Origin: Lineus longissimus
Taxonomy: Eukaryota > Nemertea > Pilidiophora > Heteronemertea > Lineidae
Assembly (NCBI RefSeq): GCF_910592395.1
Contig: NC_088323.1
Coordinates: 7,812,001-7,876,000 of the forward strand
Length of the DNA: 64,000 nucleotides
Reading direction: 5' to 3'
Shown: positions 2,661-47,610 of the stretch, piece after piece
Position numbering within the stretch: position 1 is the stretch's first letter
How the letters are laid out: each line of letters begins with the position of its first letter
The notes under the pieces: generated by a model
What the model saw: only the letters and a program-made list of their open reading frames with translations
Database searches by the model: none
Told to the model about the DNA's origin: nothing
Program-made: the position numbers and the translations under genes

Positions 2661-3256
2661 ATGCCTTTGAGATTTCAAATAAAAAGGCCGAAATGCGATG
2701 ACCAAATCATCAGTTCATCTGAACGAAGGGCGAGAGCAGAACGACACGTGTTTGCCGATTTCAAGTTCAACAAATTTACCGTGTTCTACCGTTGATCGAA
2801 ATTCAAGGAGTTTGTTGAAATCAACATCGGGCGATAAAATGTCCAGCAAGAAAGGTAAGAGGACATTTTGATACACTTTGCTTCGCTTTGTATTGAGCGC
2901 ATGTCGATTACCGTTCATCACCTGTGTTTGGTGGAAAAAATCTAATGATTCTAAAGTGTGATTGTACACATAGTATTTGGTCTGTGGGTGCTATTATAGT
3001 CATGTTGAACCATGCGGTCATTCATTAGTCAAGATGATGTCTCAAAGTGTGCATCGCTGCCGCGCGTCTGTATGGCTGTCTATTGCCTTGGCACTTTTCA
3101 TGGTGGAAGGTGTTTTGCTTTTTGTATTCGCGTCTTATATGAAGAAAACAAAATGTCTTGTTGACAGCCTTATATCACAGTCCGATTTAAATGTGGTTAG
3201 CGTTTACTAAAGACGTGCTACTTTTTTTAAATTTTTCAGTAAACAGCAGCTGTAGA

Positions 3257-3422
3257 ATGGAAAGAAATAGCGACAGAGACGATGAAACACACCGCAGTTA
3301 CGCCGATGTGGTGTCTGAAAACATAAGGGAACGCATGTTTTCTTCAACGGGTCTGTCCCTGAAGAAAAGGCAGAAGAAGGCGGATGTCGCACCTAAAGCG
3401 TCAGTCGCAGCATCTGTGAAAG
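3257..3422 (+). CDS. Unknown protein, first coding exon (unit A)
   Basis: The exon follows a TTTTTCAG acceptor at 3239 and begins at ATG 3257 with a hydrophilic, charged sequence (MERNSDRDDETHRSYADV). It ends at AAAG|GTACGT, a good donor at 3422/3423. The Lys/Ser-rich composition resembles a disordered N-terminus. I do not recognise the family. The unit B copy (25493 onward) has the same reading frame but the donor reads GAACGT, so splicing there is probably broken. Support for coding is splice signals plus conservation of the frame between copies. Confidence 0.5.
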
Positions 3423-3539
3423 GTACGTATACGTCTGTGTGGATTTCGCGATCATTTTTGATTCAATGCAGCAAAATATTTACGAACCATATTTGAAAGA
3501 GACACACTTTTAATCACACTGCTTTTTGTGTGTTTTCAG

Positions 3540-3610
3540 TGGAAGACAAACGTCCAGTGAAAATTGGGAAAGCGACACGGAAGACGTCACGACACGCACC
3601 CACGTCTCCT
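3540..3610 (+). CDS. Unknown protein, second exon (unit A)
   Basis: Acceptor TGTTTTCAG ends at 3539. The frame continues from the previous exon and reads a basic stretch (KRPVKIGKATRKTSRHAP). A possible donor is CCT|GTAAAG at 3610, but phase with the next exon is not clean, so the end is uncertain; the frame stays open to 3720. Conserved in unit B at 25776. Function unknown. Confidence 0.35.
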
Positions 3611-3748
3611 GTAAAGAAGACAAGCAAGTTTCTGCAGTTAGTTGAAAATTGCGAATTTCTCAGTTCAATGTGCGCCATTACACATAATTTACTGTTATTT
3701 GATCTTTTATGTCGATTGTAAATCAGGGTATCTTTTCTGTGATTGTAG

Positions 3749-15872: not shown

Positions 15873-17399
15873 ATGGCAGATCAAGATGGCGAGGATGTAG
15901 AGGTGTACGAGGATGTGCAGGAGGATGTACCGGCTATGCAGGAGGGTATGCGACTACGACATCGACAGCTTCCTGGCGTGGTTCCTGTGATACAGCGACA
16001 GCGGGATCTCAATGGTGAGGATGGACCTAGGATGATTGCTCCACCTGCTTTAGGGCTGTTGGGAACTATAAGGAAGAAACTGGTAGATGTTTTTTCGGCC
16101 CTTTCAGTGAGTATAGCAGCAATAGGGAACAGGACATCCTATGAACAGGTACCCATGGAGGAGACCTATGCAGCTGCACCTTACCAGCGAACGTCAACAC
16201 CTCGGAGCGACGCAGCAGCTGGTAACATGTATACCGGCTATGCACAATTGCCACCAGTTTTTCAGTCACACTCTGCAGACAACCCTGTTTCCGTAGCGAC
16301 GGTACCTACTCCACAGACAGCATCACATGTTACCTTTGCTGATGTACATCAGAGTAAAGAGCATTTTCGACAGTTACCTCAGGCCGTAACTCGACAGGAT
16401 GAGTTAACTGCATCGCCATCACTTCAACCCCACCCAGTCGCAATGACTCCCACTCGCCCATCTACTACAATGCCAGTATTAGATAACTTCTATGATGCTG
16501 TGGACACCACTGCCCCACCACCTGTGGTAAATAATTATTCTAATTGTTCTTTTGGCGGCAAGGATGAATCGTTTGTTAAAAGGCGACGCCCAAAAATTCC
16601 TGCTTTTGATGACACGAAAACTGATTTTGAGGCCTACATTGCCAATTTTAATGCTATTACCGTGGCTTGGACCAAGGAGGAAAAATTGACCGGCCTCCGT
16701 GAGAAACTTGAAGGCAAGGCTGCCAAGGTTCTAGCCAACATGGACTTACAAGGCATACAGGTGACATTTGACTCCCTTGTCAAGGCTCTTGAGAAGCATT
16801 ATGTCGGGGAACGTTCCCTGTGGATGACAAAACTTCGCGATACGAGGAGAGAGGAAGGGGAGACTCTGGACGACCTCTCTTTTAGGCTAAGTCTTTATTC
16901 CAAGCGTGCATACGGCACCCTTAAACCAGATCTTGGTTTGGAATTCTACCTGGCTCTGCGCGACACCCCCTTAGGTGATAAGCTATATGCCTACAAAGAC
17001 AGACCCCTCGCTGAAATTTTGGACCATGCAAAGTCTTATGAGAGTCACTTACTCTCTACCAATCAGTCGGTGTCTTCTGTTCCAGCTGACACTCCGGTTG
17101 TTGCGGCTTTGGGCCCAGACGCTAACAACAATGGACCGAAGGCGTCGTATCCATCTCGAAATGGAGAGAATTTCCCGTCGCGTGGTCGCGGGCGTGGTCG
17201 TGGGGCTGGCAGAGGCCGATACAACCAGAATGATCGCCGGTTTTCTTCAGATGAGCGACGATGCAATATCTGCAACTCTGCAGATCATCTGTGGTGGGAA
17301 TGCCCGTATGTAAAGCGCCACATGGATGCACAGATCAGAGCTGCTAGAGATGTTGGTCAGCCTTCAGGAACAGATGTGACTACGTCGTCAAACCAGTAG
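15873..17399 (+). CDS. gag: Gag polyprotein of the intact gypsy element
   Basis: 508 residues from ATG 15873, forming the virus-like particle and binding RNA. The order is an acidic N-terminus, a disordered Pro/Thr-rich stretch, a retrotransposon-gag helical domain around residues 235-395 (DDTKTDFEAYIANFNAI; LDDLSFRLSLYSKRAYG), a Gly-Arg RNA-binding box (RGRGRGRGAGRGRY) near 435, and one CCHC knuckle, CNICNSADHLWWEC. The length is normal for Metaviridae. Pol lies in the -1 frame relative to gag and its frame opens at 17348, before the gag stop at 17397-17399. A -1 frameshift would therefore join them, though I see no canonical X XXY YYZ heptamer. Confidence 0.92.
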   Translation: MADQDGEDVEVYEDVQEDVPAMQEGMRLRHRQLPGVVPVIQRQRDLNGEDGPRMIAPPALGLLGTIRKKLVDVFSALSVSIAAIGNRTSYEQVPMEETYAAAPYQRTSTPRSDAAAGNMYTGYAQLPPVFQSHSADNPVSVATVPTPQTASHVTFADVHQSKEHFRQLPQAVTRQDELTASPSLQPHPVAMTPTRPSTTMPVLDNFYDAVDTTAPPPVVNNYSNCSFGGKDESFVKRRRPKIPAFDDTKTDFEAYIANFNAITVAWTKEEKLTGLREKLEGKAAKVLANMDLQGIQVTFDSLVKALEKHYVGERSLWMTKLRDTRREEGETLDDLSFRLSLYSKRAYGTLKPDLGLEFYLALRDTPLGDKLYAYKDRPLAEILDHAKSYESHLLSTNQSVSSVPADTPVVAALGPDANNNGPKASYPSRNGENFPSRGRGRGRGAGRGRYNQNDRRFSSDERRCNICNSADHLWWECPYVKRHMDAQIRAARDVGQPSGTDVTTSSNQ

Positions 17400-20300
17400 G
17401 CCATGTCCCTGATCCGGAAGCACCAGGGCATGGCCGTCCAACTCGAAATGTTGCTTCTTTTGGTTCCAATCTTTATAGAGCATATTTGACTACATATCTG
17501 AATGGCCTACCTACTTGTTTTTTGTTGGACACTGGCTCAGTGTCGACTTTCCTTTCGTCGCGGGCCTATTTCAAGATACCCCGGAAATACAGACCACCAC
17601 TTACAGGTTGCGATGAGGCTGTAACTATGGCAGATGGTAAATCAACTATGAGGATTCGGGGAAAGGTTTCCATGCCAGTTCGGATACACGATATGAAGTT
17701 TACTTTCGCCATGACAGTAGTGGATATGGATTGTATGGACGGAATATGGGGCACAGATTTCATGTCAAGATTCAATTGTGATCTGAAGTTTGGTAGTGGC
17801 ACTTATGTTTTTAATGGAAAGGAATATCCCATAAATGACGTCAAACACAACTTACTACCTCATTCGGTTTGTCTTCTTAGGCCTGTTACTTTATCTCCGG
17901 GTGCTGAGATTGTCTTATCAGCAAAGTTAAATAGTCCTTTCCGTGCAAAACAGGAGGTAGTAGTGGAACCAAGCATATATTTTGTGCAGGAGCATAACAT
18001 CTTGCCTGCCAAATCTGTAACTGTACAATCTAGGAAACAGCGGCATACACCTATCCAACTTTTCAATCCTACGGCGGAAACGATTACCTTACCAAAGGGA
18101 GTGCTACTTGGCTATGCTTTTCCGGCAGCAGTGGCTGAGGCAGATCAACATTCCGAAAATTTGGAACATGATATGGGAATGGAATCTGAGACGACTTCAT
18201 CAGAATCTACTCCCCAGAGCTCCATGGATTGTTTTTCCGTGAGAACTCTGGAGGAGCTAGAAGAGGATATGCCTGAACATCTGATTGATCTGTATAAGAA
18301 ATCAAGTGCTTCTTTGGATGTGGAACAAAAACACCAGTTAGCGTCACTTCTTCTGAGGTATGGCCCTACTTTTTCTTCATCACCAACTGATATTGGATCT
18401 ACGGATATAGTGAGTCATGAGATAGATACTGGGGATGCACGGCCTTTTCGACTGCCGCTCCGAAGGCAAGGTTACCAGAAGGAAAGAGAAATCCGAGCTG
18501 CGGTTCAGGACGGCTTACAGAGAGATGTTATGGAGGAAGCCAATGGCCCATGGGCGAGTGCCCCTATTATTGTAAGGAAGAAGGACGGGACGAGTAGATT
18601 CTGTGTTGACTTTCGCAAGCTCAACTCTGTAACAAAAGTGGATGGTTACCCGATCCCAAGATTTGACGAGTGCATTGACTCACTCCACGGCAGTAACTAC
18701 TTCTGCTCTTTAGACCTCCAGGCGGGATATTGGCAAGTGCCACTAAAATCGAAACAGGACCGCGAAAAAACAGCTTTTCTAACCAAGATGGGGTTATTTC
18801 AATTTAAAGTTCTACCATTTGGCTTATGTAATGCTCCACGTACATTTGAGCGCCTCATGGAGTGTGTGCTCAGGGGTTTACAATGGGAGAAATGCATCCT
18901 CTACCTGGATGACATCTTAGTGTATGGAAAAACGTTCCAAGAGACTATGCATAACTTAGAGTGCGTATTAGAGCGTCTCCATAAAGCTAAGCTTAAAATG
19001 AAGCCTGGAAAGTGCCTCCTTTTTCAAACTAGTCTCGAGTATCTCGGACATCAACTCTCTCCACAAGGGATTGAGCCACTGACCAACAAGATAACAGCTG
19101 TTCAGTCGTGGCCCTCGTTAGCTTCTGTACCTCGGAATAAACTAAGAACGGAAGTAAAGCGTTTTCTGGGACTGGTAGGTTACTATCGTAAATTCATAAG
19201 AAACATGAGTGACATTGCGGCGCCTTTATACAACATTTTGAAGAAGGACAGTCCACTTATTTGGACACTGGATCATGAAAACTCGTTCAAGCGACTAAAA
19301 GCAGCACTCACTAGTGCACCTCTCCTGTCCTACCCGGATGTCACCAAGGGTAATTTCATCCTCGACACGGATGCCTCCAACACGGGAGTTGGCGGAGTTC
19401 TTAGTCAAGTTCAAGATGGTAAAGAGGCTGTTTTAGGATATTTCTCACATCTGCTTTCTGATTCCGAGAGACGTTACTGTATCACCAAGCGGGAATTTTT
19501 AGGGGTAATCAAGGCTGTACAGCACTTCAAACCATACTTATATGGTCAACGGTTTTTGATCAGGACAGATAATGCTGCGGTAAGCCATATGTTAACCCTA
19601 ACAGATGCTCAGGAACAGATACAACGATGGCAGTTATTTATGTCACAGTTTACGTTTGATGTGATACACAGACCCGGACGTCACCATGCAAATGCTGATG
19701 CAATGAGTAGACTTTTCTGTCAACAATGTGGACGGACCGATGAGATAGACCCAGGGATAGATACAAGCATGTCCAGGGGCAAACCAAGAAGATTCCGTAT
19801 CAAAGAATCTGTAGATGTTCCACCATGTGAACATACGCTACATACAGATGAGTCAGTGGAGGAAGAGGTCGATAGGCTTATGATGAGCTGTGCTGTAACT
19901 ACCCGAGCTCAGGCCCTTGAAGCCATGGTGAAACAACACAGACCTGCTGACCCGTCTGACCCCAACCTGGTCCCAGAGGTCGATCACCTGGTTCCACTGT
20001 CAGGAATGCACAATCTACAAATATCCGACCCTGATATAGCTCCAATCCTTCAGCTCAAGTTGAGTGGATCAGATTATCCAAATTATAGATGTATCTCAGG
20101 CGAGAGCCTCAGTGTTAAAACCCTTAGGCAACACTGGAGGCACTTGTTTGTGGATAATGGAATCTTATGTCGCAAATTGGACATCCCAGATAGACCAATG
20201 AGAATTCAGCTTGTCGTGCCGCGCACACTAAAGCAGTCTATTATGGCGAAACTACATTCTGATCCTTGTTCCGGACACTTAGGAACTTTGAAAACTGCGG

Positions 20301-21316
20301 AGCGTGTAAAGGCTAAATTTTATTGGGTTGGCTGGAGAAGAGATGTTGCCAGGTATGTTTCACATTGTGACGCGTGCAATGTTATGAAGTATCCGCATAA
20401 GAAGAAGAGGGTACCTTTGACCCAACAGCTCTTTGGGGAGGCCTTTGAGCGGGTATGTGTTGACATCATCGGACCGTTGAAGCAGACGCCTAGAGGCTTC
20501 CAGTACGTCTTAACCATGGAGGATACTTTTACAAAATGGGTGGAGGCTGCCCCTCTCAGGACATTGGAGACAACAGAAGTATGTAATGCCATTGTTAGCG
20601 AACTCATTTCACGGTTCGGTTGCATGTATATTTTGCACAGCGACAGAGGCCCACAGTTTGTGTCCCAGCTGTATGACTCACTACTCAAGAAATTGGGGAT
20701 TGATAGGAGTTTGACCACCCCATATAATCCAAAAAGCAATGGCCTTGTCGAGAATTTTAACAAGATCTTGAAGTCTATGATGAAAACATATGTATACGAT
20801 CACAAGGAATCTGTTGGCAACTGGGATGTGATGCTACCAATGTTCTTGATGGCATATAGGTCCTCGGTCCACAGTAGCACTGGGGAAACGCCACATTTTA
20901 TGTTGACTGCCCGTGAGATGAAGACTCCTCTTGATCTCTTATATTCCAAACCATCGGAATCTCGGGAATCTGTTCCTACCTACATCAGGAACCTGGAGGA
21001 TAGATTTCATAAAGCATATAGCATTGCTCGTGACCAGCTTCGATTAGCTCAGCGGATACAGAAAAAACAATATGAACCATCAACGTTAAAATATCAAGAC
21101 TTGAAACCAGGACAGTTTGTCTGGTACTTTAATCCCAGAAAATCGTTCAAGGGTGACAAGCATCTAGCCTGGAAAGGACCATATAGGGTAAAGGATATAG
21201 GTGATGATTTCACCGTAACACTTCAATTAGACTCTGATGGGCATTTATACCGTACCCATCTTGATAAGTTGCGCCCTGCCCATGGAGTTACAGAGGAGAA
21301 CTGGTCACCGAAGTGA
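17348..21316 (+). CDS. pol: Pol polyprotein: protease, RT, RNase H, integrase
   Basis: This frame has no good ATG at its start and is probably expressed as a Gag-Pol fusion. Numbering from 17486, the domains are: protease with LLDTGS at 14-18; reverse transcriptase with FRKLNS, QAGYWQVPL and the catalytic YLDD at 473-476; RNase H starting FILDTDAS with Asp627; integrase with a His/Cys zinc-binding region (CDACNVMKY) and the catalytic triad Asp993, Asp1053 and Glu1089, a DD35E spacing. The C-terminus has the beta-barrel type ending (GPYRVKDIGDDFTVTLQL). No stops or frameshifts interrupt about 1,320 codons. The domain order PR-RT-RH-IN places it in Ty3/gypsy. No chromodomain and no env gene are visible. 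Confidence 0.96.
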   Translation, partial: RCWSAFRNRCDYVVKPVGHVPDPEAPGHGRPTRNVASFGSNLYRAYLTTYLNGLPTCFLLDTGSVSTFLSSRAYFKIPRKYRPPLTGCDEAVTMADGKSTMRIRGKVSMPVRIHDMKFTFAMTVVDMDCMDGIWGTDFMSRFNCDLKFGSGTYVFNGKEYPINDVKHNLLPHSVCLLRPVTLSPGAEIVLSAKLNSPFRAKQEVVVEPSIYFVQEHNILPAKSVTVQSRKQRHTPIQLFNPTAETITLPKGVLLGYAFPAAVAEADQHSENLEHDMGMESETTSSESTPQSSMDCFSVRTLEELEEDMPEHLIDLYKKSSASLDVEQKHQLASLLLRYGPTFSSSPTDIGSTDIVSHEIDTGDARPFRLPLRRQGYQKEREIRAAVQDGLQRDVMEEANGPWASAPIIVRKKDGTSRFCVDFRKLNSVTKVDGYPIPRFDECIDSLHGSNYFCSLDLQAGYWQVPLKSKQDREKTAFLTKMGLFQFKVLPFGLCNAPRTFERLMECVLRGLQWEKCILYLDDILVYGKTFQETMHNLECVLERLHKAKLKMKPGKCLLFQTSLEYLGHQLSPQGIEPLTNKITAVQSWPSLASVPRNKLRTEVKRFLGLVGYYRKFIRNMSDIAAPLYNILKKDSPLIWTLDHENSFKRLKAALTSAPLLSYPDVTKGNFILDTDASNTGVGGVLSQVQDGKEAVLGYFSHLLSDSERRYCITKREFLGVIKAVQHFKPYLYGQRFLIRTDNAAVSHMLTLTDAQEQIQRWQLFMSQFTFDVIHRPGRHHANADAMSRLFCQQCGRTDEIDPGIDTSMSRGKPRRFRIKESVDVPPCEHTLHTDESVEEEVDRLMMSCAVTTRAQALEAMVKQHRPADPSDPNLVPEVDHLVPLSGMHNLQISDPDIAPILQLKLSGSDYPNYRCISGESLSVKTLRQHWRHLFVDNGILCRKLDIPDRPMRIQLVVPRTLKQSIMAKLHSDPCSGHLGTLKTAERVKAKFYWVGWRRDVARYVSHCDACNVMKYPHKKKRVPLTQQLFGEAFERVCVDIIGPLKQTPRGFQYVLTMEDTFTKWVEAAPLRTLETTEVCNAIVSELISRFGCMYILHSDRGPQFVSQLYDSLLKKLGIDRSLTTPYNPKSNGLVENFNKILKSMMKTYVYDHKESVGNWDVMLPMFLMAYRSSVHSSTGETPHFMLTAREMKTPLDLLYSKPSESRESVPTYIRNLEDRFHKAYSIARDQLRLAQRIQKKQYEPSTLKYQDLKPGQFVWYFNPRKSFKGDKHLAWKGPYRVKDIGDDFTVTLQLDSDGHLYRTHLDKLRPAHGVTEENWSPK

Positions 21317-27758: not shown

Positions 27759-30156
27759 CTGGCTTTTCATCGACAAACCACCGGTTCCTGATATTCAGGC
27801 CAAACCCACCTGATGATGGTACGTAGTAGAGGATCACAATACACGCATGGTAACGACCAATAGCAGTAGACTGTCAACTTGGAAGGCAGGCCTAGGTTTT
27901 AGAGGGGCTGCTGTATGTTTCGCAGGTGACCTAATAGGGTTACGTCATTTGTACGGACGAGTGCCGCGGCGGAATAATACGGGGTGTCCCACAAAATACT
28001 CCACCGGTTTTTACAGGATGTTTAATTTCAAAATTTGAGTACCTTAAAAAGCGTAAAAAAGGCATATCAAGGCTTGTTTGCTAAGTGTAATGGATGATTG
28101 AAAGGAACTTCGAACAACAATGTCTGGTCCATAGTTTGGAATCCGGGAGAATTACCTTAGCATTTTAGTTGGGACAACACGTAGGCCTAAAAGGGCAAAA
28201 ACTATTGAGTAATCAGTGAGGTTTCAGGCGTATATAAAGTTTGGGTACTGTCGGAAACCTCTTCTTGCCTTGCCTACAACTTGTAGAAATATGGATGAGC
28301 CACTGCCTAAAAGAAAGCGTAGTTATTCCGTGTCGGAGAAGCTGCGATACCTGCGATACTTTGAGGTTGCCATTGGAAATGGCACTGTGCGAACGATGAC
28401 AGAATTTGCCAACCACCACAACATACCTTTTGAGACGTTTCGCAGGTGGAACCGTCATGACCTGGAATTGAAGGAGGAGCAGAACCGGGGCAAAGACCGA
28501 AAGGTGAAGCAGAGGATGATTGGTTACTGGCCTGAGGTCGATGACCAACTAGAAATTTGGTTCCGGGATGTTCGGCGAAGACGTCTACCTGTTGTGATCC
28601 AGGATGTCCAGGTCCAGGAGAAGGCCGTGCAACTATTCCAGACCTGGTGGGAAGCCCTCCCAGAAGAGCGCCGACAACTCGCCACAGAGGCAAAACCACT
28701 AATGCATGATTTCCATGCATCCAACAGCTGGGTGGAACTTTTTATGAAGAGGAAGGACATCAGCCTGCGAAAGGTCATGAAGAACACTACCACCATTCCA
28801 GAAAACCCCGTTGTCCTGGTTCGAAACTTTCGCGATGAAATAACCAACACCATCGAAAATTTTGGTATACGAATACGCCTGTTTTTCAACATGGACCAGA
28901 CTTTCCTCCTTTTTGACCTCCGCCTAATGTACACCCTCAATGAGAAAGGTGCCAAGTCTGTTGATGTACGAACCTCAAGGAAGAATGCAAAGCTGGGATG
29001 TTCTGTTACACTTTGCGTGGCGGCGAATGGCGATAAGATGCGAGCCCACATCACCTTTCCGAGAAGAGGATTTGTTCGCGCGCTTCGAGCTCTGGAAGAG
29101 GCCGAGTTGCCCGAAAACATTGTGGTCACATCGTCCGCCACGGGATGGGTCAGACAGGAGACAAGTCACCATTGGCTTGACGAAATCTTCATCCCATACG
29201 TCCATGAGGCCCATGCTGAACATTTCATACTTTTGGTGGATCAGTTCAGAGTACATCGAACGGAGAACTTCAGGAATCGTCTCACTGCAGAAGGGGGCAG
29301 ACTCAACTTTGTACCGGTTAGATGCACATCTTTGGCACAACCCCTGGATGTGGCTGTCATGAGATCCTTCAAATGTCACGCCAGACAAGCATGGAAGTCA
29401 TGGAAGACCGAAAACACCAACACCGAAGCAGGCCAGTGTGATCCAATTGGACTCAGAGATGTCGTCAAAATCGTCAGCCGTGCCTTGGAAGCGATCAGCC
29501 CAGAGGTCGTCGAGCATGGATTTGAGAAAGCGTTACGCCCACAGAACATAGATGCAGGTCCACACTCGGTTCCAGATGACGACGATGACGACGAAGAGGG
29601 GGTAGAATTCCTCAATCTGCCTGATGAGTTTGAGCCTGAGATAGCAGGGCAGTAAGCAATCGGGTCAACAGAGAAAATCGACAACCGGACCAGAATAAAA
29701 ATCCAAAATAATGAATAAAAAAAAAACAGAAATGAGAAATAAAAAATAAAAACAATGAATAAAGGCAAAAAAGATGAATAAAGATTGGATGAAAGCCAAT
29801 CTGAATAAACCTGAATGCATGAAGCATTGCTGTCTTGAAGCGATGCTGGTAGAGCCCCCAAAAGGCCTGTGATGCCCACTCAAACGCGTTTTATGTGAGA
29901 AAGGGTTAACGTTGATCTATCAAACAGACCCAAACCGCAAAACCGCACTGAAACCGCAAACTCCGACCGCAAACCACAATAAACGCGAGCGCTTTGCATA
30001 TCCTATGTGTCTCGTTAGGCCAATCTGTCATTCTACTAGTAATACACCTACTTCATTCAACTTTCGACCAATGAGTGAAATGGTATTGTGCCCTGTGCTC
30101 GCGGTAGGCGTATGCATTAAGCCTAATGAACCGGTCTTACATCGATGAAAAGACAG
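27759..30156 (+). mobile_element. pogo/Tigger-like DNA transposon with TA target duplication
   Basis: The ends are inverted repeats: CTGGCTTTTCATCGA at 27759 against CTGTCTTTTCATCGA read inward from 30156, with ACCGGTTC shared a little further in. TA flanks both ends (27757-27758, 30157-30158). Unit A at about 23112 is the uninterrupted site. At 2398 bp with one long transposase ORF, this is the usual size for the family. Confidence 0.92.
28291..29655 (+). CDS. pogo/Tigger-type DDE transposase
   Basis: 454 residues from ATG 28291. An N-terminal helix-turn-helix region (YSVSEKLRYLRYFEVAIGNG) is followed by a CENP-B-like second HTH (SNSWVELFMKRKDISLRKVM). The RNase-H-like catalytic domain shows Asp202 (FFNMDQTFL), Asp317 (LLVDQFRVHR) and Asp353 (AQPLDVAVMRSFK); the last two have 35 residues between them, giving the DDxD signature of the pogo branch of Tc1/mariner. 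An acidic tail with an Asp run ends the protein. The frame is intact, and the flanking TIRs suit it, so the element could be recent. It would cut and paste elements carrying these TIRs at TA sites. Confidence 0.92.
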   Translation: MDEPLPKRKRSYSVSEKLRYLRYFEVAIGNGTVRTMTEFANHHNIPFETFRRWNRHDLELKEEQNRGKDRKVKQRMIGYWPEVDDQLEIWFRDVRRRRLPVVIQDVQVQEKAVQLFQTWWEALPEERRQLATEAKPLMHDFHASNSWVELFMKRKDISLRKVMKNTTTIPENPVVLVRNFRDEITNTIENFGIRIRLFFNMDQTFLLFDLRLMYTLNEKGAKSVDVRTSRKNAKLGCSVTLCVAANGDKMRAHITFPRRGFVRALRALEEAELPENIVVTSSATGWVRQETSHHWLDEIFIPYVHEAHAEHFILLVDQFRVHRTENFRNRLTAEGGRLNFVPVRCTSLAQPLDVAVMRSFKCHARQAWKSWKTENTNTEAGQCDPIGLRDVVKIVSRALEAISPEVVEHGFEKALRPQNIDAGPHSVPDDDDDDEEGVEFLNLPDEFEPEIAGQ

Positions 30157-30513: not shown

Positions 30514-33070
30514 ATGAAACGGCCAGGGGCCATTGTGCTCACCGTATACATCTTTTAGTAGGCAGGATCATGCTTAGTTTAGAGGTGAATATGGTGAACA
30601 CAATCAGGCATGAAGACTTTTTTTAGATGTGTATTGATGTCAAGTAATAAGACAGGGCAGTAAGTTTATGATCCAACCAATAATTGTCTATGACATCAAC
30701 AAGATCAATATCCTGTGATTGCTAAGAGTCCCTGCAATAAAAAATTCATCGAAAAAAAGTCATTAATAAGCAAGATATTGCACGTCCTACTTTTTCAGTT
30801 TTGACCCCCTGGTGGCCAAATCAAGAATCAGATGAGGCCAAAATTCGGTGTCAGAGATTATCTGATGTAGGGGGTTACATGTACCAACTTTCAAGTTCAT
30901 AGCTTCAGCAGTTAAGAAACGTGCCATAGTTACACTCTAATGGCAAATTTATGCCATTTGACCTCTGTGATCTAGAAAAGGAGGTCAAATCCAAAAATCG
31001 TAGGACATGTGGTGTATCCTTGCTAGAAGTCCCTGCCATAAAAATTTTATCGAAAACAATTCACTCAAATAAGCAAGATATTGCACTTCTTCCTTTTTCC
31101 ATTATGGCCCCCTGGTGGCCGAATAAAGAATCAGATCAGGCCAAAATTCGGCATCAAAGGTTATCTGATGTAGGGGGTTATATGCACCAAGTTTCAAGTT
31201 CATAGCTTTACTGGTTAAGAAACGTGCCATAGTTTACACACCAACGGCAAATTTACGCCATATGACCTCTGTGACCATGAAAAGTAGGTCAAATTGAAAA
31301 CCCATAAGACATGTGATGTATTCTTCCAAAGAGTACCTACCATAAAAATTTTATCGAAAACAAGTCACTTATAAGCGAGATATCACACTTTTTAGATCCA
31401 CTTTTGGCCCCCTGGTGGCAAAGTTGAGAATCAGATCAAACTGAAATTCAGCACCAGAGGCTATGTGATATAGGGGGTTATATGTACCAAGTTTCAAGTT
31501 CATAGCTTTAGTGGTTAAGAAACGTGCCATAGTTTACACTCTAACGGCCAATTTACGCCATATGACCTCTGTGAACTTGAAAAGTAGGTCAAATTAAAAA
31601 CCCGTATGATATAAGATGTATATTTGCTATGAGTACCTACAACAAAAGTTTCATCGAAAACAAGTCACTAATAAGCGAGATATCACACTTTCTCGATATC
31701 GACATTTGGCCCCCTGGTGGCCAAGTTGAGAATAAGATCGGACCGAAATTCAGTGTCAGAGGTCACCTGACCTAGGGGGTGCTGTGTACAAAGCTTTAAG
31801 TTCATAGCCCTAGCGGTTAAGAAACGTGCCACTGTTTTTTAAATAGGATACGACGACGGACGACGGACGACGACGACGGACGACGGACACTGCGGTATTA
31901 CATAAGACTCCCCTACGGTGAGCCAAAAATCAAGAAAATGTAAGATACAAGTCAGAAAAGACAAAAGGGAAAAGATAAAAAATAATAAAATAAAAAAATA
32001 TTTTTGGCCGTCCCTGACCGGGGTTTGAACTCACGACCTTTGGATTGCCACAACACGAAAAACACAAAACATGCAATTTCGGCCATATCTGTGTCTGCGT
32101 TGTGACCTCTGTGACCTCGACAAGTAGGTCAAATTAAAAACCCATATGATATATGATGTATCCTTGCTATGAGTACCTAACACAAAAGTTTTATCGAAAA
32201 CAAGTCATCAATAAGCGAGATATCACACTTTTTAGATATCCACATTCAACCCCCTGGTGGCCAAATTGAGAATCAGATCGGACCGATATTCAGCACAAGA
32301 GGTTCTCTGATATAGGGGGTTATATGTACCAAGTTTCAAGTTCATAGCTGTGGCGGTTGAGAAACGTGCCATAGTTACACTGAAACAGCCAATTTATGCC
32401 ATTTGACCTCTGCAACCTTGAAAAGTAGGTCAAATTAAAAACCCGTACGATATATGATGTATCCTTGCTATGAGTACCCACCACGAAAGTTTTATTGAAA
32501 ACAATTTATTGATAAGCGAATTATCACACTTTTTAGGTATCCACATTCGGCCCCCTGGTGGCCAAGTTGAGAATCAGATCAGACCGAAATTCAGCACCAG
32601 AGGTTATCTGGTATAGGGGGTTATATGTACTAAGTTTCAAGTTCATAGCTGTGGAGGTTGAAAAACGTGCCATAGTTACACTGAAACAGCCAATTTACGC
32701 CATTTGACCTCTGTGACCTTGAAAAGTAGGTCAAATTAAAAACCCGTATGATATATGATGTATCCTTGCTATGAGTACCTACCACAAAAATTTCATTCCA
32801 AACAAGTCATTAATAAGCGAGATATCACACTTTTTAGATATCTACATTCGGCCCCCTGGTGGCCAAATTAAGAATCAGATCGGACTGAAATTTAGTGTCA
32901 CAGGTCATCTGACCAAGGGAGTCCTGTGTACAAAGTTACAAGTTCATAGGCTTAGCGGTTAAGAAACGTGCCACTGTTTTTGAAACAGGATACGACGACG
33001 ACGACGGACGACGACAGACGACGACGGACGACGGACACTGCGGTATTGTAAAGACTCCCCTACGGTGAGC
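30514..33070. mobile_element. 2.5-kb insertion made of ~300-bp tandem repeats with GGTGAGCC ends
   Basis: Unit A (CCTGAAAAAAGGGTAAAAG at 23461) is the empty site. The insert begins near TGAAACGGCCAGGGGCCATTG and GTGCTCACCGTA and ends CTCCCCTACGGTGAGCC, so short inverted ends are present (GCTCACCGTA). Inside are two arrays with a period of about 300 bp: four units (about 30600-31850) and three units (about 32095-32975). Each unit holds GGCCCCCTGGTGGCCAA, AGGGGGTTATATGTACCAAG and AAGAAACGTGCCA. Each array closes with an ACGACGG run and GACTCCCCTACGGTGAGCC (to 31925 and to 33070). No protein is encoded. Confidence 0.8.
31985..32075 (-). mobile_element. Possible tRNA-derived SINE fragment
   Basis: Between the two satellite arrays, the minus strand reads AAGGTCGTGAGTTCAAACCC then CGGTCAGGGACGGCC and an A/T-rich tail. 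GAGTTCAAACCCC resembles the B box of a tRNA-derived promoter. No A box or full cloverleaf is visible, so this is not a tRNA gene. Confidence 0.35.
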
Positions 33071-38617: not shown

Positions 38618-39828
38618 CACAACATCGCTTGAATATCTATCATTACGGTGAACACTATGCCCCTATTATGCCTATGACCGGTTTCTTAGAAAAAGCCTAT
38701 TTTTGTCCTCATTGTGATACAGGCTTCCAGGATTACAAAACACATATTTGCAACAAAACTTGTGCCTGTTGTAAAACCGATGAGGATTGTCCCATCGTTA
38801 AGTGGCGAAACTGTTCCGATTGTCTACGGGTCTTCAAAAGTAATAAGTGTTTTGACAGACACCAAGTCAAAAACCAAAACGACAATAGTGTGTGCGATCT
38901 TTTCAAAAAATGTAAAACATACGCTAAGTGTTATGACGCGCGGCGCACAAAGCATGCATGCTACATGTCTTTTTGCAGTATTTGCGGGTTGAACAGGCCT
39001 TTCGCACACGACTGCTATATAAAGAAACCTGTGATAAAGAAAAGGGATCCTGGTGTACCCCGTAGAATTTATGAAGTTTGTATTCTACGATTTTGAGGCA
39101 ACACAGGAGAAAATACTGGCTGATGGTTCAAAGGAGCACGTGCCCAATCTGTGTGTTGCACAGCGTTGCTGCCTTTTTTGTGGGAGGGAACAAAGCGCTA
39201 AAAATGATGACGACTTGAGCTGTATTGTGTGCGGAGACAGACGTGATGAATGCGTCTTCAAGGGGGAGGGTACCGTGACGGAATTTTGTGATTGGTTATT
39301 CAACGACGAAAATATGGGGCGGGTGGGGAGATACCCGACATGAAGTACTTTGACCCTGAGAGCATGTCTGTTGACGGTAGAAAGGAATTTATGTTGCGGT
39401 ACGAAAATCAAAAAGGAAAAGAGTACAACATGTTCGAGGAGCTTCTTGCATACTGTAAAAGTGACGTTACGATTCTCCGTCGCTGTTGTGTCTTATTCGC
39501 TCTGGCTTTTGAAAACATTCTAAAGGTTAATCCCTTTGAGAGAAGTACAACCATGGCTTCAGCATGCAGTCGAGTGTACCGTCAAAACTTTATAGAGCCC
39601 AACACCATTGGCGTACTACCTCCATACAGCTATACATGCGACAAACAGTCTGCTATAGGTCTCAAGTGGTTGGAATGGTTGATGCGAAAAAACCCAAATC
39701 TCTTTATACAACATGCCCAGAACGGGGGCAAAAAGGCGATTGCGAATTACAAAGTAGACGGGTAGGATGAGCGGAATAACGTTGTCTATTCATTCGATGG
39801 GTGTAACTTTCATGGTTGCGAAGTCTGC
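38618..39828 (+). pseudogene. Family-B DNA polymerase, zinc-binding and exonuclease region, decayed
   Basis: Begins at RLNIYHYGEHYAPI and continues with a Cys/His-rich zinc-binding region (YFCPHCDTG; CKTCACC-type pairs; CSICGLNRPFAHDC) typical of Polinton-like polymerases. A frameshift near 39065 precedes Exo I (FVFYDFEATQE). A deletion at about 39315-39330 removes Exo II: the sequence jumps from DWLFNDEN to GEIPDMKYFDPESM. Exo III survives (YCKSDVTIL, about 39450). It ends KVDG, then TAG at 39762-39764 where such proteins have Tyr, then a short FHGC motif at about 39811-39822. Right after that the NS1-like block begins. The protein would have replicated linear DNA, probably by protein priming, but this copy cannot be functional. 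Confidence 0.75.
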
Positions 39829-41572
39829 ACAATTCGTTGAAGCTTTGAACAAGCTGGACGTTATCGTCTATTTCCATCCGCGTGAGGAAGAGAAACCGAG
39901 TGATGAATGTAACGAGTTCCCTCACGGACATCTCCACCTTATCGTCCGACTGGAGGGGCGTCCTGACAATTGCCGCCCTCTACGTCGCATTAAGCGTATT
40001 GCGGGTGATATGCTCGGCTATTGTAAGTCGGCTCCCTGTGTCAGTCCAAAGGGCCTTGTTCAGTATTGCGAACAGGCTCCTCGTATCTATGCTGGAACGA
40101 GGACTCGTGGTTGGTGTAGCAGAAGGAGAGATGCCATTGCCGACGCTGTCGGGATGGAAAACGCCAAGACCAAGCAGGAAGCCCGGAACGCACGATCGAC
40201 CAGATGGGCAGCCGATCGCGCCGATAAAGAGCTACAGAGTAGCCCTGTTAAGGCATGGCAAATGATTAGCGGAGACGCTATGCGGAAATTCACAAACGAG
40301 GATTGTATTACCATGTTAACGGCATTCGCTCGGAAAAAGCACTGCTACGATCGAGAGGAGTTTATGCGTTACGTAAGTGGGGAGTACTCTTTGCCGCATC
40401 AAACTCGTGTCAACCTGAAACGAATCTTCGCCCGGAGTAACTTCGAGCAAGTGTTTAATAAAGCCGTGGACGTCGTCGTCGAGGAACTAAGGAACATTCC
40501 ATTCTGCCAACGTATTCAAGCCGCGAACATATCTGGGACTTATCAGGACAATGAAAAGTACTTGTCGGTGGATACTTCGGCTATTGTCGTGGACAATATC
40601 CTGAAGGCCTGGGGCATTGATCGCCGTGAATTTCTGAGCAAGGTCTTCGGGGTATTGTGCAGGATAAAGCCGAAGAAAAACTGCGTGGTGTTCGAGGGCG
40701 AATCCAACGCCGGAAAATCATTCTTGGTAAGATCATTATTTCCTTTGTATAACAACTTGTACGGGGAAGTCCACCCCCATCTCCTGAACCAATTCGCGTT
40801 CATGGATTGTGTCAAGAAGAGCCTCGTAGTGGCCGAAGAGTTTGTCATAAGCCCAGAAATTTGTGACATGAGCAAACTTCTGCTCGAAGGGTCGGCCTTC
40901 AAAACCCCGGTGAAATGCAAGAGGGACGCTTTCGTAGATCCCACCCCTGTCATCATAACCACAAATAGGCCTATCGATAGCTGGCTTCAGGGGGAGGACA
41001 AGGTCGCTATCAAGAACCGTTGCTACTTCATAAAATGCAAAACCTGCGAGTTCCTCAAAGATATCCAAAAACCCCTGAACCCCGCTGTGTGGTGCGAACT
41101 GTATAACTTCTACGAGGCCATGGCCATGCTCCGTGATTTGGAGGAAGACGACGATGTCGTCGAGTTTGATCTCGAGCAAGGGTTTAAAGATCTAGCATCA
41201 GACATAGATTCCGATGAAGAGCGCCTTGAAGCTCTAAAAGATGCTTCTGCTGTTGCAGACGCAGAGGAGATGGAAGTGTACGACCAGATGCAGTATTTGG
41301 TCTCTCCCACTGTGGACATCCCAGATCCTACTCCTCGGCAGGCCTACAATGAGCAAAGCCCCGTTAAAGCTCCGGTGTACGAGGTTGAAGATATTTCAGA
41401 TCCAGAGTCACCCTTGAAGGCACCTGGTGCGCCCAAGAGGGGTAGGCCCAAATCTAAAGTTGTTAGGCCTAATGCGTTGAAGTTGCCGAAGATTAAGCTC
41501 GACTTTAAAACTCCAGAGTCACCCGAGAAGAAGAAAAAAAAAACCACCCGGGGCAACAGTGCCACAAAGTAG
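39767..41572 (+). CDS. NS1-like replication initiator: HUH endonuclease plus SF3 helicase
   Basis: 601 codons without interruption. The first ~22 come from polymerase DNA read in another frame, so the original N-terminus is missing or replaced. Then follow the HUH motif GHLHLIV (His55, His57), candidate nicking tyrosines near 85-108 (GLVQYCEQ), and an SF3 helicase: Walker A GESNAGKS (311-318), Walker B-type LVVAEEF (354-359) and motif C PVIITTN (394-400), then KNRCYF (Arg418). The C-terminus (about 480-601) is acidic, then Pro/Lys-rich. This layout is that of parvovirus NS1/Rep, which nicks an origin and unwinds DNA for rolling-hairpin replication; bidnavirus and some transposon Reps are related. 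The ORF is intact although it sits inside a broken gene, which implies later arrival or selection. A GTGTAG-type end and poly-A signal follow at 41769. Confidence 0.85.
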   Translation: MSGITLSIHSMGVTFMVAKSAQFVEALNKLDVIVYFHPREEEKPSDECNEFPHGHLHLIVRLEGRPDNCRPLRRIKRIAGDMLGYCKSAPCVSPKGLVQYCEQAPRIYAGTRTRGWCSRRRDAIADAVGMENAKTKQEARNARSTRWAADRADKELQSSPVKAWQMISGDAMRKFTNEDCITMLTAFARKKHCYDREEFMRYVSGEYSLPHQTRVNLKRIFARSNFEQVFNKAVDVVVEELRNIPFCQRIQAANISGTYQDNEKYLSVDTSAIVVDNILKAWGIDRREFLSKVFGVLCRIKPKKNCVVFEGESNAGKSFLVRSLFPLYNNLYGEVHPHLLNQFAFMDCVKKSLVVAEEFVISPEICDMSKLLLEGSAFKTPVKCKRDAFVDPTPVIITTNRPIDSWLQGEDKVAIKNRCYFIKCKTCEFLKDIQKPLNPAVWCELYNFYEAMAMLRDLEEDDDVVEFDLEQGFKDLASDIDSDEERLEALKDASAVADAEEMEVYDQMQYLVSPTVDIPDPTPRQAYNEQSPVKAPVYEVEDISDPESPLKAPGAPKRGRPKSKVVRPNALKLPKIKLDFKTPESPEKKKKKTTRGNSATK

Positions 41573-41768
41573 ATATGTTAGTCCGGTACAAGGGTCACGT
41601 GATGACCAAATGTAATAGATTGTTGTTTCGTAATAAGTACCAGAAGAAGAAGTAGAAATGTCATGTATTGTGTAGTCTGTTGTAGTTTTGAATGTCTTTT
41701 GAGTGTATTTCTAGTTTAGCGTGTAGAATGTAGTAGGAGAGCTGGCCTTTCGTTGTAGACATTGTACC

Positions 41769-41774
41769 AATAAA
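41769..41774 (+). terminator. Poly(A) signal AATAAA after the NS1-like ORF
   Basis: AATAAA about 200 bases past the NS1-like stop, followed by GT/T-rich sequence. It is the first such signal downstream. Confidence 0.5.
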
Positions 41775-41829
41775 TGATTGCTTGGTAGTTGTACCTAAAC
41801 TATCGAATATATTTGTCTTCACATTATCA

Positions 41830-41946
41830 ATGGCTGACGGACATAGGAGTCCCGAGCTGAAGATGGACGGAATTGCTCGCCTTAGGGCTACGTACTCTCC
41901 AAATTTCATGGAATTCGGACCAAGGACACCGGAGATATTTACTTAA
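41830..41946 (+). CDS. Short ORF between NS1-like gene and palindrome
   Basis: 38 residues from ATG 41830 to TAA 41946 (MADGHRSPELKMDGIARL...). It follows the poly(A) signal and could be the start of a second gene of the NS1 block that was lost. The length is within chance, and I do not recognise it. Confidence 0.25.
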   Translation: MADGHRSPELKMDGIARLRATYSPNFMEFGPRTPEIFT

Positions 41947-41989
41947 AACCCCCGACGCTAACGGTTAAGCCCTTTAACGAAAATTGAAA

Positions 41990-42029
41990 ATGACACGAAG
42001 TGTCATAAATCCCTCTTACACCGGTGTAA
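41990..42029. repeat. Two small palindromes near the large one
   Basis: ATGACAC-GAA-GTGTCAT (41990-42006) and the perfect palindrome TTACACCGGTGTAA (42016-42029) lie 10 bases apart. Small palindromes of this kind occur at Rep binding and nicking sites; this is a suggestion only. Confidence 0.5.
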
Positions 42030-42156
42030 CAGGGAAAATACTCCCTTGCTAATAAAATAGAAATGACTGGACTTTCTTAGACCCTGCACCCTGCCCTGCC
42101 TGCAGTCCCTGCAGCAGCTAAAAACAATACAAATTAATTGCCTATTGTCTTTGACC

Positions 42157-42573
42157 TTTGACCTTTGACCTTGAACTTGACCTAATTAAATATGTAAATT
42201 GAGAAACCGTTACATTGTTATGCAAAATCGTTAAAACAGTTCCATTGATAAAAAGTAGTTCGTCTCGTTAAAACAGTTCCATTGTTCGAAAAGTAGTCCG
42301 TGTTATCGAATGTAAAAAACTAATCCCGAGTTACCAAGTCCAAAACCGGAACTGGCTACTCGCTGTGCTCGGCCTTCCGGTTCTTGCTACTTGGTGTCTC
42401 GAGCTTAGTTTTTGACTATTCGATGTCACAGACTACTTTTCGAACAATTCCACTGTTTTAACTCACCGAACTACTTTTTATCAATTCCACTGTTTTAACG
42501 ATTTTGCATAACAATTCCACTGTTTCTCAATTTACACATTTAATTAGGTCAAGTTCAAGGTCAAAGGTCAAAG
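42157..42573. repeat. Imperfect palindrome of ~417 bp (terminal-hairpin or foldback)
   Basis: The left arm (TTTGACCTTGAACTTGACC, then GTAAATTGAGAAAC, GTTATGCAAAATCGTTAAAA, GATAAAAAGTAGTTCG, TTCGAAAAGTAGTC) reappears inverted in the right arm down to 42573. The centre is near 42365, between AACCGGAA (about 42344) and its inverse TTCCGGTT (42375-42382). Mismatches are clustered, not random: three times one arm has CAGTTCCATTG (or a variant) where the other has CAATTCCACTG, so the TTCCA core is conserved in the same orientation and would form an internal loop. It lies just after the NS1-like gene and ends about 20 bases before polymerase sequence resumes. A non-viral foldback element is the alternative. 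Confidence 0.85.
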
Positions 42574-43985
42574 TGGACAAATGGAGACACCATGAATCAA
42601 CGTACAGGTTCAACTATGGGTGAACTGCGCGAACCCACTGCGTTTTGGCGTACTTTCTTGAAAGACCGCGGGTACACTGTCATTTCCAAGCGCGAGTGCG
42701 AGTTCAGAGCGGAAATTAAGGAAGATCCCGAACTGGCAGCATTAGCAAAAGATCTGAACATCTCCGAGCCTCTGAACCCCCGAGAAGCCATTTTCGGGGG
42801 AAGAACGAACGCTGTGAAACTGTATCACAAATGCAATGAAAACGAAAGCATCAAATATGATTTTACATCGCTTTATCCGTATGTCAATAAATATAAACAT
42901 TATCCTCTAGGGCACCCGGTGGTGTACTGGGGTGAAAATCTGCAAAAGGTTGACGACCAACTGAAGTGCGAAGGTCTTATCAAATGTAAAGTATTACCGC
43001 CAAATCAATTGTATTTTCCTATTTTACCCCAGAGGACGGGTAACAAGTTGAAGTTTTCTCTTTGTGCGAAGTGTGCGGAGACGTCGTCTAAAATGTGTGA
43101 CCATTCAGATGATGAGCGCGCTCTGATAGGGACATGGGTTATATTTGAAGTCAGAAAAGCGGTCGAAAAGGGCTATCGTCTGGTGCAAACATACGAAATT
43201 TGGGATTTCGAGCAAACAACCCAATATGATCTTGAGAAGAAAGAGGGCGGTCTATTTACGAGTTTCATTAATACTTTTCTAAAGCAGAAGCAAGAAGCTA
43301 GCGGTTGGCCCGATTGGTGCGAGACCGAAGAAGACAAAAAGAAGTACATTGATGATTACGCGAAGCACGAGGGGATCACTTTAGACCGTTACAATATCAA
43401 ATATAACGCAGGCATGCGCAGTACCTACAAGGCAGGGTAATGTGCGTTGTGGGGAAAATTCGGGCAACGAAATAACTTTGTATAGACATTATATACGGAT
43501 AGTCCAGAGGTTTATATCAATAAATTGATGGTCGGTAGCATTGAAGTAACAGATTCTCAATTAGTGAATGAAGAATTCGTTCTTTTGAAATCCCGTGAGA
43601 AGACTGAATTCATAGAAGCGTGTCCTTACACAAATTGTGTTATCGCAGCTTACACAACTGCACATGTGCGGCTGAAATTGTATGAGGAGTTGGAAAAACA
43701 TGATCAACAATTATTATATTATATTTTGACACTGATAGTATTATATACGTGTACGACAAAACAAACAAAAAACACTTCAACCCACCCCTAGGCGACTATC
43801 TGGGGGATTTCAAGGATGAGTTGAACGGCGCATCCATTGAAGAGTTTGTTTCAGGGGGACCAAAAAACCACGGGTATCGCATCAAAGAGAGTCAAGAGAC
43901 TGTGTGCAAAGTCCAAGGGTTCACCCTGAACTATGGTAAAGTTCCAGTATCTTCGCGGGCTTCTGGTTACGTGACCCAAAAAAGA
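42574..43985 (+). pseudogene. Family-B DNA polymerase, palm and thumb region, decayed
   Basis: Continues the gene split by the NS1 block. Readable segments are STMGELREPTAF, GYTVISKRECEF, the FGGRTNA template-binding type motif, motif A (DFTSLYPYVNKY, about 42860), motif B (CALWGKFGQRNN, about 43441-43476) and motif C (DTDS at about 43725). Stops lie at 43438-43440 and 43483-43485, and a frameshift falls immediately before motif C. Beyond it PPLGDYLGD and GPKNHGYRIKE are typical C-terminal features. Homology ends near 43985. Both catalytic motifs keep their Asp residues, but the gene is broken. Confidence 0.8.
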
Positions 43986-46130: not shown

Positions 46131-46251
46131 AAGTGGTCACACAAGACATCTCTGATTTTTTCCCCTATGTCTATTAACTGCCTCCCCGCAAGCCACCTGT
46201 AATATCAATTAGTCCTTTCGGTTCTGGTTCCTGTGCGACAGCTCCAGGTGC

Positions 46252-46440
46252 CAGTGGTTTTGCCGTGTTGTGTCGGGCCACGCCCAAGGTGAACACACTT
46301 GTTTTGCAAGGTGAAAGCAACTCCGGTAGGTCACTCTAAATTCGGTCACTCCTGCCCTTGTACGACAACAATTACGGGGAAGTACATCCCCACTTTATGG
46401 ATGGTCAGTGGCCTCTTGACTATTGTTACAAGGGTCGAAG
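46252..46440 (+). pseudogene. Second NS1-like helicase fragment
   Basis: Reads FAVLCRATPK, then GESNSGRSL and a TAA stop, then IRSLLPLYDNNYGEVHPHF. This matches the Walker A region of the NS1-like protein at about residues 294-340 (FGVLCRIKPK, GESNAGKS, RSLFPLYNN, YGEVHPH). The Walker A lysine is Arg here and a stop follows, so it is dead. No HUH domain or palindrome is seen nearby. It shows the NS1-like family is present more than once. Confidence 0.75.
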
Positions 46441-47610
46441 TTCAAGACGTGGTTCCGGCACCTGGAGGACGCCCCCCCCCCCCTCCTCATCATCCCCGGC
46501 CTTCAATCCGATGGTTTGTTTTTATCTTACGGATTTTTTGTAACGATGATAATCCGCAAAAGGTAAACAAACGCTTCATTCACCCGTCATAAACAACTTG
46601 AGAACACATCCCCCCAATCCCCGGCCCCCAGGTGCGTAATACATAAGCTGGGTACAGTTTGTAAGAAGAAAGTGGACCCAGGGTGCAGTTTCAGCGGACG
46701 ACATTGAACCTGGGTACACTTTATATGTACCCAGGACAACAGTAATCCCTTCAGCCCAAGTTACTCAGGGACAATAGACCGATACAAATGGTCCCGCAAC
46801 AATTATTACAATCCACGTTGAATGAAATCTCCACCATGTTGATAAGAAAAAATTCAACCTTTAGCAAGCTCACCGCTACGATAGAAAAAGAGTGGCTGAA
46901 TTTTACAACACAGTTGACCACCTTTTAATCAATGGGATTTGATAGTTCGATCTTTCATCTGTACAGGCGTTAAACGACAATGTTTCAGCATCAACCAGAA
47001 TTGTGACTGACAAGCCATATTTTGCAATAAGTATTGATTCTTGATGGAACCAGAAGCCAGTTATTATGATTGTGAATGTGCCAAATTGTTTATCTTCACT
47101 TTACCTGGCTGATCATCGGAATATTATGAGGCTTCGTAATTTTTCCCTGACCCCACACCATACGAATGAATTTCTGATCCCCTGGCACCAAAACCAGTAT
47201 TTAGCTTCCAATATACAATCAAAATGGAAAATATCTTGCCATGTTAGATCTGCATACACCTGAAGCCTTGCAAATATTGCATAATTAATTTACCAGAATG
47301 TAGATGCACTCTTCAGAAACATATGTTATAGATCATGCGCAGTACATCAATGGACAATATTACATACTCCCATACTGTTAATGTTCTGCTAGGTGTCTTG
47401 GACCAGAAACTACTTGATAGGCTTTCTGTTGTAGATGTTGAACAACACCACCAGCACTTAAACTGCCCACTATACCAAATGTAAAGGGTTTCAGATTCTC
47501 TTTTACTTTTATGGAATTACCTCTCGTTTATCTGCGGCATCTCTCATCAGCCTTCGTCATTAGAATCCCTGCCCCCATGTACATGATTGCCCAAGCGATT
47601 TGTTTTTTGG
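46441..47610. other. No gene seen
   Basis: A poly-C tract near 46479 and AT-rich sequence; no coding or repeat structure that I can support. Confidence 0.4.

What the first reader, a model, noticed from the sequence alone, without database searches (positions are those of the whole stretch)
39829..42573. Intact NS1-like (HUH + SF3 helicase) gene next to a long hairpin palindrome, nested in a dead polymerase gene
Seen: a 1.8-kb uninterrupted ORF with HLH, GESNAGKS, LVVAEEF and PVIITTN motifs, then 0.6 kb with a poly(A) signal, then a ~417-bp imperfect palindrome. Family-B polymerase sequence lies immediately on both sides and is full of stops. Known: parvovirus NS1 has this domain order and acts on terminal hairpins; bidnaviruses combine an NS1-like helicase with a Polinton-type polymerase. 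Inferred: this block is an integrated parvovirus-like genome or a Rep-encoded hairpin-ended transposon, younger than the polymerase it splits. No left hairpin or capsid gene is visible.
Basis: partly seen in the sequence, partly recalled or inferred. Interest (0 to 1): 0.88.

Follow-up and report, generated by a model that had tools for sequence, protein, structure and literature searches.

The report
Parvovirus-like genome fragment inside polymerase gene
A piece of an unknown parvovirus-like virus, most of its replication gene plus its terminal DNA hairpin, is lodged in a broken polymerase gene on an animal chromosome, and better-preserved relatives in the same genome show an unusual gene order.

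Summary
ORF 39767-41572 encodes a parvovirus NS1/Rep-type SF3 helicase (Parvo_NS1 E 2e-16), followed by a poly(A) signal and a real 418-bp palindrome (fold z -25). Open-frame polymerase paralogs give the empty site: the insert is 39829-42577, four target bases are lost, and there is no target-site duplication. So a viral right end was end-joined into the polymerase, which is only the target. 'Intact' is overstated: ~20 first codons are out-of-frame polymerase and ~54 NS1 residues are missing.

Five close NS1 loci in this 391-Mb genome all reach a right-end palindrome or hairpin-tipped ITR (C8 breaks off inside it); a decayed sixth relic has none. The copies diverged under protein constraint with saturated dS, so they look like separate endogenizations.

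Sibling C16b reads ITR-VP-PLA2-NS1-ITR on one strand. C5 (ITR-VP) and C8 (NS1-ITR) independently support VP before NS1; the PLA2 domain is seen once. This order is unusual for parvoviruses. VP is tentative and placement untested. Window and C20 hairpins share triplet bubbles shown on opposite strands, as flip and flop would be.

The parts
39829..42577 (+). whole insert: NS1 gene without its 5' end, 3' non-coding region, right-end palindrome
   Evidence: empty site in paralogs C13:9600978 and C5:16699117, C10 compatible; four target bases missing, no TSD
39767..41572 (+). 601-aa ORF: NS1/Rep-like protein with chimeric start
39767..39828 (+). ORF start made of polymerase sequence read out of frame, not NS1
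   Evidence: the polymerase reading DERNNVVYSFDGCNFHGCEVC continues to 39828
39923..39937 (+). HxHxH (HUH-type) motif, invariant in the 4 copies aligned
   Evidence: no profile or fold support
40553..41032 (+). SF3 helicase core (Walker A 40697-40720, B 40823-40843, motif C 40946-40966)
   Evidence: Parvo_NS1 E 2.3e-16; profile of 5 copies hits AAV Rep40 E 5.4e-14
41769..41774 (+). AATAAA; followed by a block also found in C20 and C13
42156..42573 (.). right-terminal palindrome/hairpin
42211..42280 (.). three triplet bubbles (42211-42213, 42241-42243, 42278-42280), opposite sites in 42445-42522
39292..39828 (+). left flank: family-B polymerase with in-frame stop
   Evidence: PF03175 E 1.7e-7; 95.8% to C13 and C5 paralogs over 189 nt
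42578..43440 (+). right flank: polymerase resumes
   Evidence: PF03175 E 2.4e-17; 95% to the paralogs over about 120 nt
46250..46500 (+). second, decayed NS1-like relic, closer to the C16b/C8 group
   Evidence: tblastn 68.5% over 54 aa, one stop;

Best explanation
The block is the right-hand end of a parvovirus-like virus genome that was end-joined into a family-B polymerase gene in the germ line. Shown: partial NS1, 3' region, complete terminal palindrome, exact junctions, empty site, linkage of NS1 to a palindrome or hairpin-tipped ITR at the other close loci, and a near-complete sibling with the order VP-PLA2-NS1 between ITRs. Inferred: in the virus, NS1 nicked and unwound the terminal hairpins (rolling-hairpin replication). 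The repeated triplet bubbles, shown on one strand in the window and on the other in the C20 copy, fit a hairpin that is inverted (flip/flop) at terminal resolution and may mark NS1 sites. The window copy lacks about 54 N-terminal residues, probably including the start of the nuclease domain, so it is most likely a non-functional fossil with an open helicase frame.
For: Helicase identity. Empty site, no TSD, 4-bp loss. Right-end structure at 5 of 5 close loci: palindromes at window, C20, C13; ITR with 80-nt terminal hairpin at C16b; C8 breaks off in that hairpin. PLA2 domain PF08398 E 2.7e-12 at C16b; AAV capsid chain E 3e-4. ITR-to-VP junction repeated at C5; junction from the tail of the PLA2 ORF through NS1 to the ITR repeated at C8. 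NS1 copies: dN 0.11-0.60; dS 2.24 for window-C20 and not computable for the other 12 pairs computed.
Against: HUH nuclease rests on motifs only: no Pfam hit for three N-terminal pieces at E up to 10, no parvovirus hit in the PDB profile search, single-sequence AlphaFold model poor (pLDDT 49). VP is weak: first piece has one PDB hit, E 0.34-0.52, second piece none, neither a Pfam hit. The PLA2 domain and VP next to it are seen at C16b alone, whose VP is broken by a 1.17-kb host repeat. The relic at 46250 has no palindrome. No tree against known parvoviruses could be built (protein database off; viral-contig scans found no relative).
Confidence: 0.88

Rival explanations
1. A hairpin-ended transposon that encodes its own Rep and moves by nicking and joining.
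For: NS1-like gene and palindrome form a unit at several loci; some Rep transposons leave no target-site duplication (recalled). Three near-identical C15 copies of a distant NS1-like gene with a palindrome exist.
Against: The five close copies are mutually divergent with saturated dS, unlike an amplifying transposon; insertion cost four target bases; the left ends lie at different points; a sibling carries a PLA2 domain and a VP-like gene. The C15 copies sit in 97.6-98.6% identical repeats of at least 9.9 kb, so they were copied with their surroundings.
Confidence: 0.06
2. A bidnavirus-like virus in which NS1 and PolB belong to one genome.
For: NS1 and PolB are adjacent; bidnaviruses combine both (PMC4061559, passages).
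Against: Open-frame PolB copies without NS1 give a clean empty site; the insert splits the PolB reading; no PolB among the five + strand frames of C16b scanned; its right ITR ends in a hairpin, while the cited paper says bidnavirus ITRs do not form parvovirus-type hairpins.
Confidence: 0.01
3. The NS1-like ORF has been kept by selection as a host gene (domesticated); not exclusive of a viral origin.
For: 579 NS1-derived codons are open in a polymerase copy that has decayed; neutral simulations keep such a frame open in 0.1-7.5% at 2-3% substitutions and in 0-0.3% at 4.5%; C20 and C13 frames are open too.
Against: At 0.5-1% substitutions the frame stays open by chance in 9-53%. The age is unknown; the 4-5% between polymerase flank and paralogs is an upper bound. 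The native start is lost and no transcript data were at hand. Two other close copies (C16b, C8) are broken.
Confidence: 0.05
4. Chance neighbourhood of an NS1 relic and an unrelated palindromic repeat.
For: TGACCTTTGACC-type repeats are common in this genome.
Against: In the block search the palindrome had DNA relatives only at C20, also behind NS1 (counts there are lower bounds); arm sequence and bubbles are shared between the two; such palindromes are rare.
Confidence: 0.01

Closest known systems
Parvoviridae, NS1/Rep (AAV Rep40/68 best by sequence)
   Same: SF3 helicase motifs, hairpin termini, PLA2 domain in a sibling, sibling about 5.3 kb without the inserted host repeat
   Different: sibling has VP and PLA2 ahead of NS1 on the same strand; a paper read here puts the NS ORF on the left side (PMC9896142, passages)
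Acheta domesticus segmented densovirus (AdSDV), vp segment
   Same: small VP ORF with a separate PLA2 ORF downstream (PMC10267136, passages and Discussion)
   Different: in the sibling NS1 follows on the same molecule; in AdSDV it is on another segment; no sequence comparison with AdSDV was made beyond the PDB searches
Bidnaviridae
   Same: parvovirus-type SF3 helicase; proposed origin by parvovirus integration into a Polinton (PMC4061559, passages)
   Different: here the polymerase is a broken target; HUH motif present; hairpin ends present
Endogenous parvoviral elements of invertebrates
   Same: NS1-related sequences are found more often than VP (PMC5013282, passages)
   Different: exact empty site, complete terminal hairpin with patterned bubbles, sibling with a different gene order

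Membership tests
Parvoviridae | NS1 with SF3 helicase domain | tested here: met
Parvoviridae | NS1 N-terminal HUH nuclease | tested here: inconclusive
   invariant E, HxHxH, K and Y in 4 copies; no profile or fold support; N-terminus missing in the window copy
Parvoviridae | palindromic hairpin termini / ITRs | tested here: met
   a left terminus is known only from C16b (truncated) and C5
Parvoviridae | genome of about 4-6 kb with NS and VP cassettes (PMC11357303, start of abstract in listing; PMC10267136, passages) | tested here: inconclusive
   C16b spans L011:237-6751 with a 1.17-kb host repeat inside; VP identity weak
Parvoviridae | PLA2 domain (many but not all members), upstream of the major VP region | tested here: inconclusive
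   domain present at C16b, but downstream of the VP-like ORF there
Parvoviridae | NS cassette to the left of VP (customary; not a formal criterion that I saw) | tested here: not met
   VP before NS1 in C16b; C5 shows ITR-VP start, C8 shows NS1 end-ITR
Parvoviridae | linear ssDNA in a T=1 capsid | not testable with these tools
   only integrated DNA at hand
Bidnaviridae | PolB gene as part of the genome | tested here: not met
   empty site; frames of C16b
Bidnaviridae | ITRs without parvovirus-type hairpins, no HUH domain | tested here: not met
   hairpins; HUH motif only:
DNA transposon with Rep | precise ends and several similar copies at different sites | tested here: not met
   genome counts are lower bounds

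The most novel reading that the evidence does not exclude
The loci are fossils of an undescribed lineage of hairpin-ended viruses with the single-strand order VP, separate PLA2, NS1, the reverse of the usual parvovirus order. Some members' hairpins carry an inverted-core triplet bubble that works as a strand-specific NS1 origin signal and records flip or flop at the moment of integration.
Probability: 0.42. Interest if true: 0.75.

Novelty: new variant of a known kind. Interest (0 to 1): 0.6.

Why it matters
It gives, with exact ends and an empty site, a case resembling the event proposed to have started bidnaviruses (a parvovirus entering a Polinton); here it only destroyed a family-B polymerase, and that this polymerase is a Polinton's was not tested. 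The siblings point to a parvovirus-like lineage with VP and PLA2 ahead of NS1, which bears on how parvovirus cassettes were shuffled and on AdSDV, described as possibly unique in its PLA2 downstream of VP. The bubble pattern is a testable candidate origin signal.

Tried and rejected
Rejected: a target-site duplication TG(C/G)ACAA that I first thought I saw; the paralogs show four bases lost instead. Rejected: reading the 88% arm identity as pure age; half of the mismatches are patterned. Rejected: all of the first VP-like frame as capsid; its residues beyond about 238 are a 1.17-kb host repeat (135 scored matches of 2,520 first-look candidates, two of them the VP itself and C5; 94-98% DNA identity at 4 of 4 such places compared). 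Rejected: the 253-nt repeats as complete ITRs; the right ITR runs on to a hairpin at L011:6672-6751 (one mismatch in 253 there, 100% as printed).

Changed after checking my calls: the triplet motif fits fewer sites exactly than I first wrote; the PLA2 domain is at C16b only (C8 has the tail of that ORF); the relic without a palindrome is now told.

Full report
What is there. ORF 39767-41572 (601 aa) is open and matches Parvo_NS1 at E 2.3e-16 over residues 276-405; the nearest solved structures are AAV Rep40/Rep68 at E 1.1e-10, 5.4e-14 with a profile of five copies. About 0.6 kb with AATAAA follows, then a 418-bp palindrome that folds at z -25 against 100 shuffles.

Empty site. The right polymerase flank has 105 listed matches there, among them open frames of about 1,320 aa. 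Against paralogs C13:9600978 and C5:16699117 the left flank matches to 39828 (95.8%) and the right from 42578 (95%); each paralog has four more bases between. C10, at 83% and 75%, is compatible. The insert is thus 39829-42577, without target-site duplication, and the palindrome ends four bases before it does. Polymerase reading continues to 39828, so the ORF's first ~20 codons are not NS1. Against C20 (first Met at residue 18 of its open frame; window residue 24 aligns to residue 75) about 54 N-terminal residues are gone.

Relatives. A protein search of the genome gave ten rows (first-look candidates only, so lower bounds): window, C20, C16:12.28 Mb ('C16b'), C13, C8 (two rows), three C15 copies at 29% identity, and a relic in the window at 46250-46500. 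C20 holds a 679-aa open frame, then the same 3' region and a palindrome. C13 holds a 5'-truncated open frame, the 3' region and a palindrome of other sequence. C16b and C8 frames are broken. The relic has no palindrome. Thirteen pairs of open segments were compared (two further pairs left out: C16b's two parts of one gene, and its first part against C8's second): dN 0.11-0.60, dS 2.24 for window-C20 and not computable for the other 12, third codon positions differing far more than second. They diverged as working genes and so probably entered the genome separately. The block's DNA found the palindrome only at window and C20.

The fullest sibling. C16b has inverted repeats at L011:237-489 and 6352-6604. 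The right one continues to a perfect 32-bp-arm hairpin at 6672-6751; the left is truncated, as C5 shows. Between them, all on the + strand: a VP-like frame from 531, interrupted by a host repeat from 1245 to about 2412; a second piece, 2434-2928, likely its rest; a frame 2932-3693 with a PLA2 domain (PF08398 E 2.7e-12; AAV capsid chain E 3e-4); and an NS1 frame from 3776 with one in-frame stop. C5 repeats ITR-to-VP (89.6%, L011:237-1063). C8 repeats the tail of the PLA2 frame, NS1 and the ITR (74%, L011:3351-6718) and breaks off in the hairpin; the PLA2 domain itself is not there (residues 139-254 only). Since C5 has the start of VP next to an ITR and C8 the end of NS1 next to an ITR, VP before NS1 on one strand does not rest on C16b alone; VP next to PLA2 does. 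VP is tentative: its first piece has one PDB hit, 'Putative structural protein VP', E 0.34-0.52, its second none, and neither has a Pfam hit.

Hairpin detail. In the stems given to, 9 of 18 mismatches (window, 156 nt) and 12 of 13 (C20, 86 nt) fall in runs of exactly three. The seven triplets share a context: CART-nnn-ATTG fits 6 of 7 on at least one arm and 4 of 7 on both; the seventh ends in ATTC. Random placement gives at least as many triplets in 0.035% and 0% of 20,000 trials (the window trial used 19 mismatches, one more than observed). Read on one strand, both arms show T(C/A)C in 7 of 7, with the same bases on both arms in 3 of 7: on the + strand in the window, on the - strand at C20. 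In one search, CAATTCCA or TTCCATTG occur at 5 sites on + and 0 on - in the window copy, 7 on - and 0 on + at C20, and not at C13. That is what flip and flop of one hairpin type would look like; since the two viruses differ, it may also be a fixed difference.

Mechanism. Shown: fragment, junctions, linkage. Inferred from established parvovirus biology: NS1 nicks and unwinds the hairpin ends; a linear intermediate, broken at the left, was joined into a chromosomal break. Whether the open frame is still used is undecided: neutral simulations (indel ratio 0.05-0.15) keep it open in 9-53% at 0.5-1% substitutions, 0.1-7.5% at 2-3% and 0-0.3% at 4.5%.

Comparison. Bidnaviruses are proposed to stem from a parvovirus that integrated into a Polinton (PMC4061559, passages); this locus resembles such an event, but a dead one. 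AdSDV was described as possibly unique in having a PLA2 downstream of VP (PMC10267136, passages and Discussion); C16b would be a second case, with NS1 on the same strand. Sea-star densoviruses discovered up to 2020 are ambisense (PMC7737747, section 8). In nine answered full-text searches I saw no title or abstract start describing the order VP-PLA2-NS1; only asked for gene order, the library holds open-licence papers only, and passages or sections of seven papers were read. What it works like: a parvovirus. Whether it is a formal member: not decided, since no tree was possible and VP is weak.

Noticed in passing
L027-L029 (C15: 4173500, 4515200, 3653400): Three repeats of at least 9.9 kb, 97.6-98.6% identical, carry a distant NS1-like helicase (29% identity; Parvo_NS1 E 1.9e-17 in L027) followed by a ~720-bp palindrome, beside an ORF with a weak Phage_integrase match (E 0.005, below Pfam's cut-off); possibly part of a larger mobile element.
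   Followed up: partly
window 46250-46500: A second decayed NS1-like relic, closer to the C16b/C8 group, 4 kb from the first and without a palindrome.
   Followed up: partly
L011:1245-2412: A ~1.17-kb host repeat with TGACCTCTGTGACC units and an ACG tail, in very many copies, sits in the VP-like gene of C16b; similar-looking units occur in the window at 30719-33033.
   Followed up: partly
L011:237-489 and 6352-6604: The two repeats differ at one of 253 positions although the element carries a stop in NS1, a stop before the PLA2 frame and a host insertion; unexplained unless young or homogenised.
   Followed up: no
window 17348-21316 and 28213-29655: Long open retroelement pol ORF and an open Tc5/DDE_1 transposase-like ORF.
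   Followed up: no
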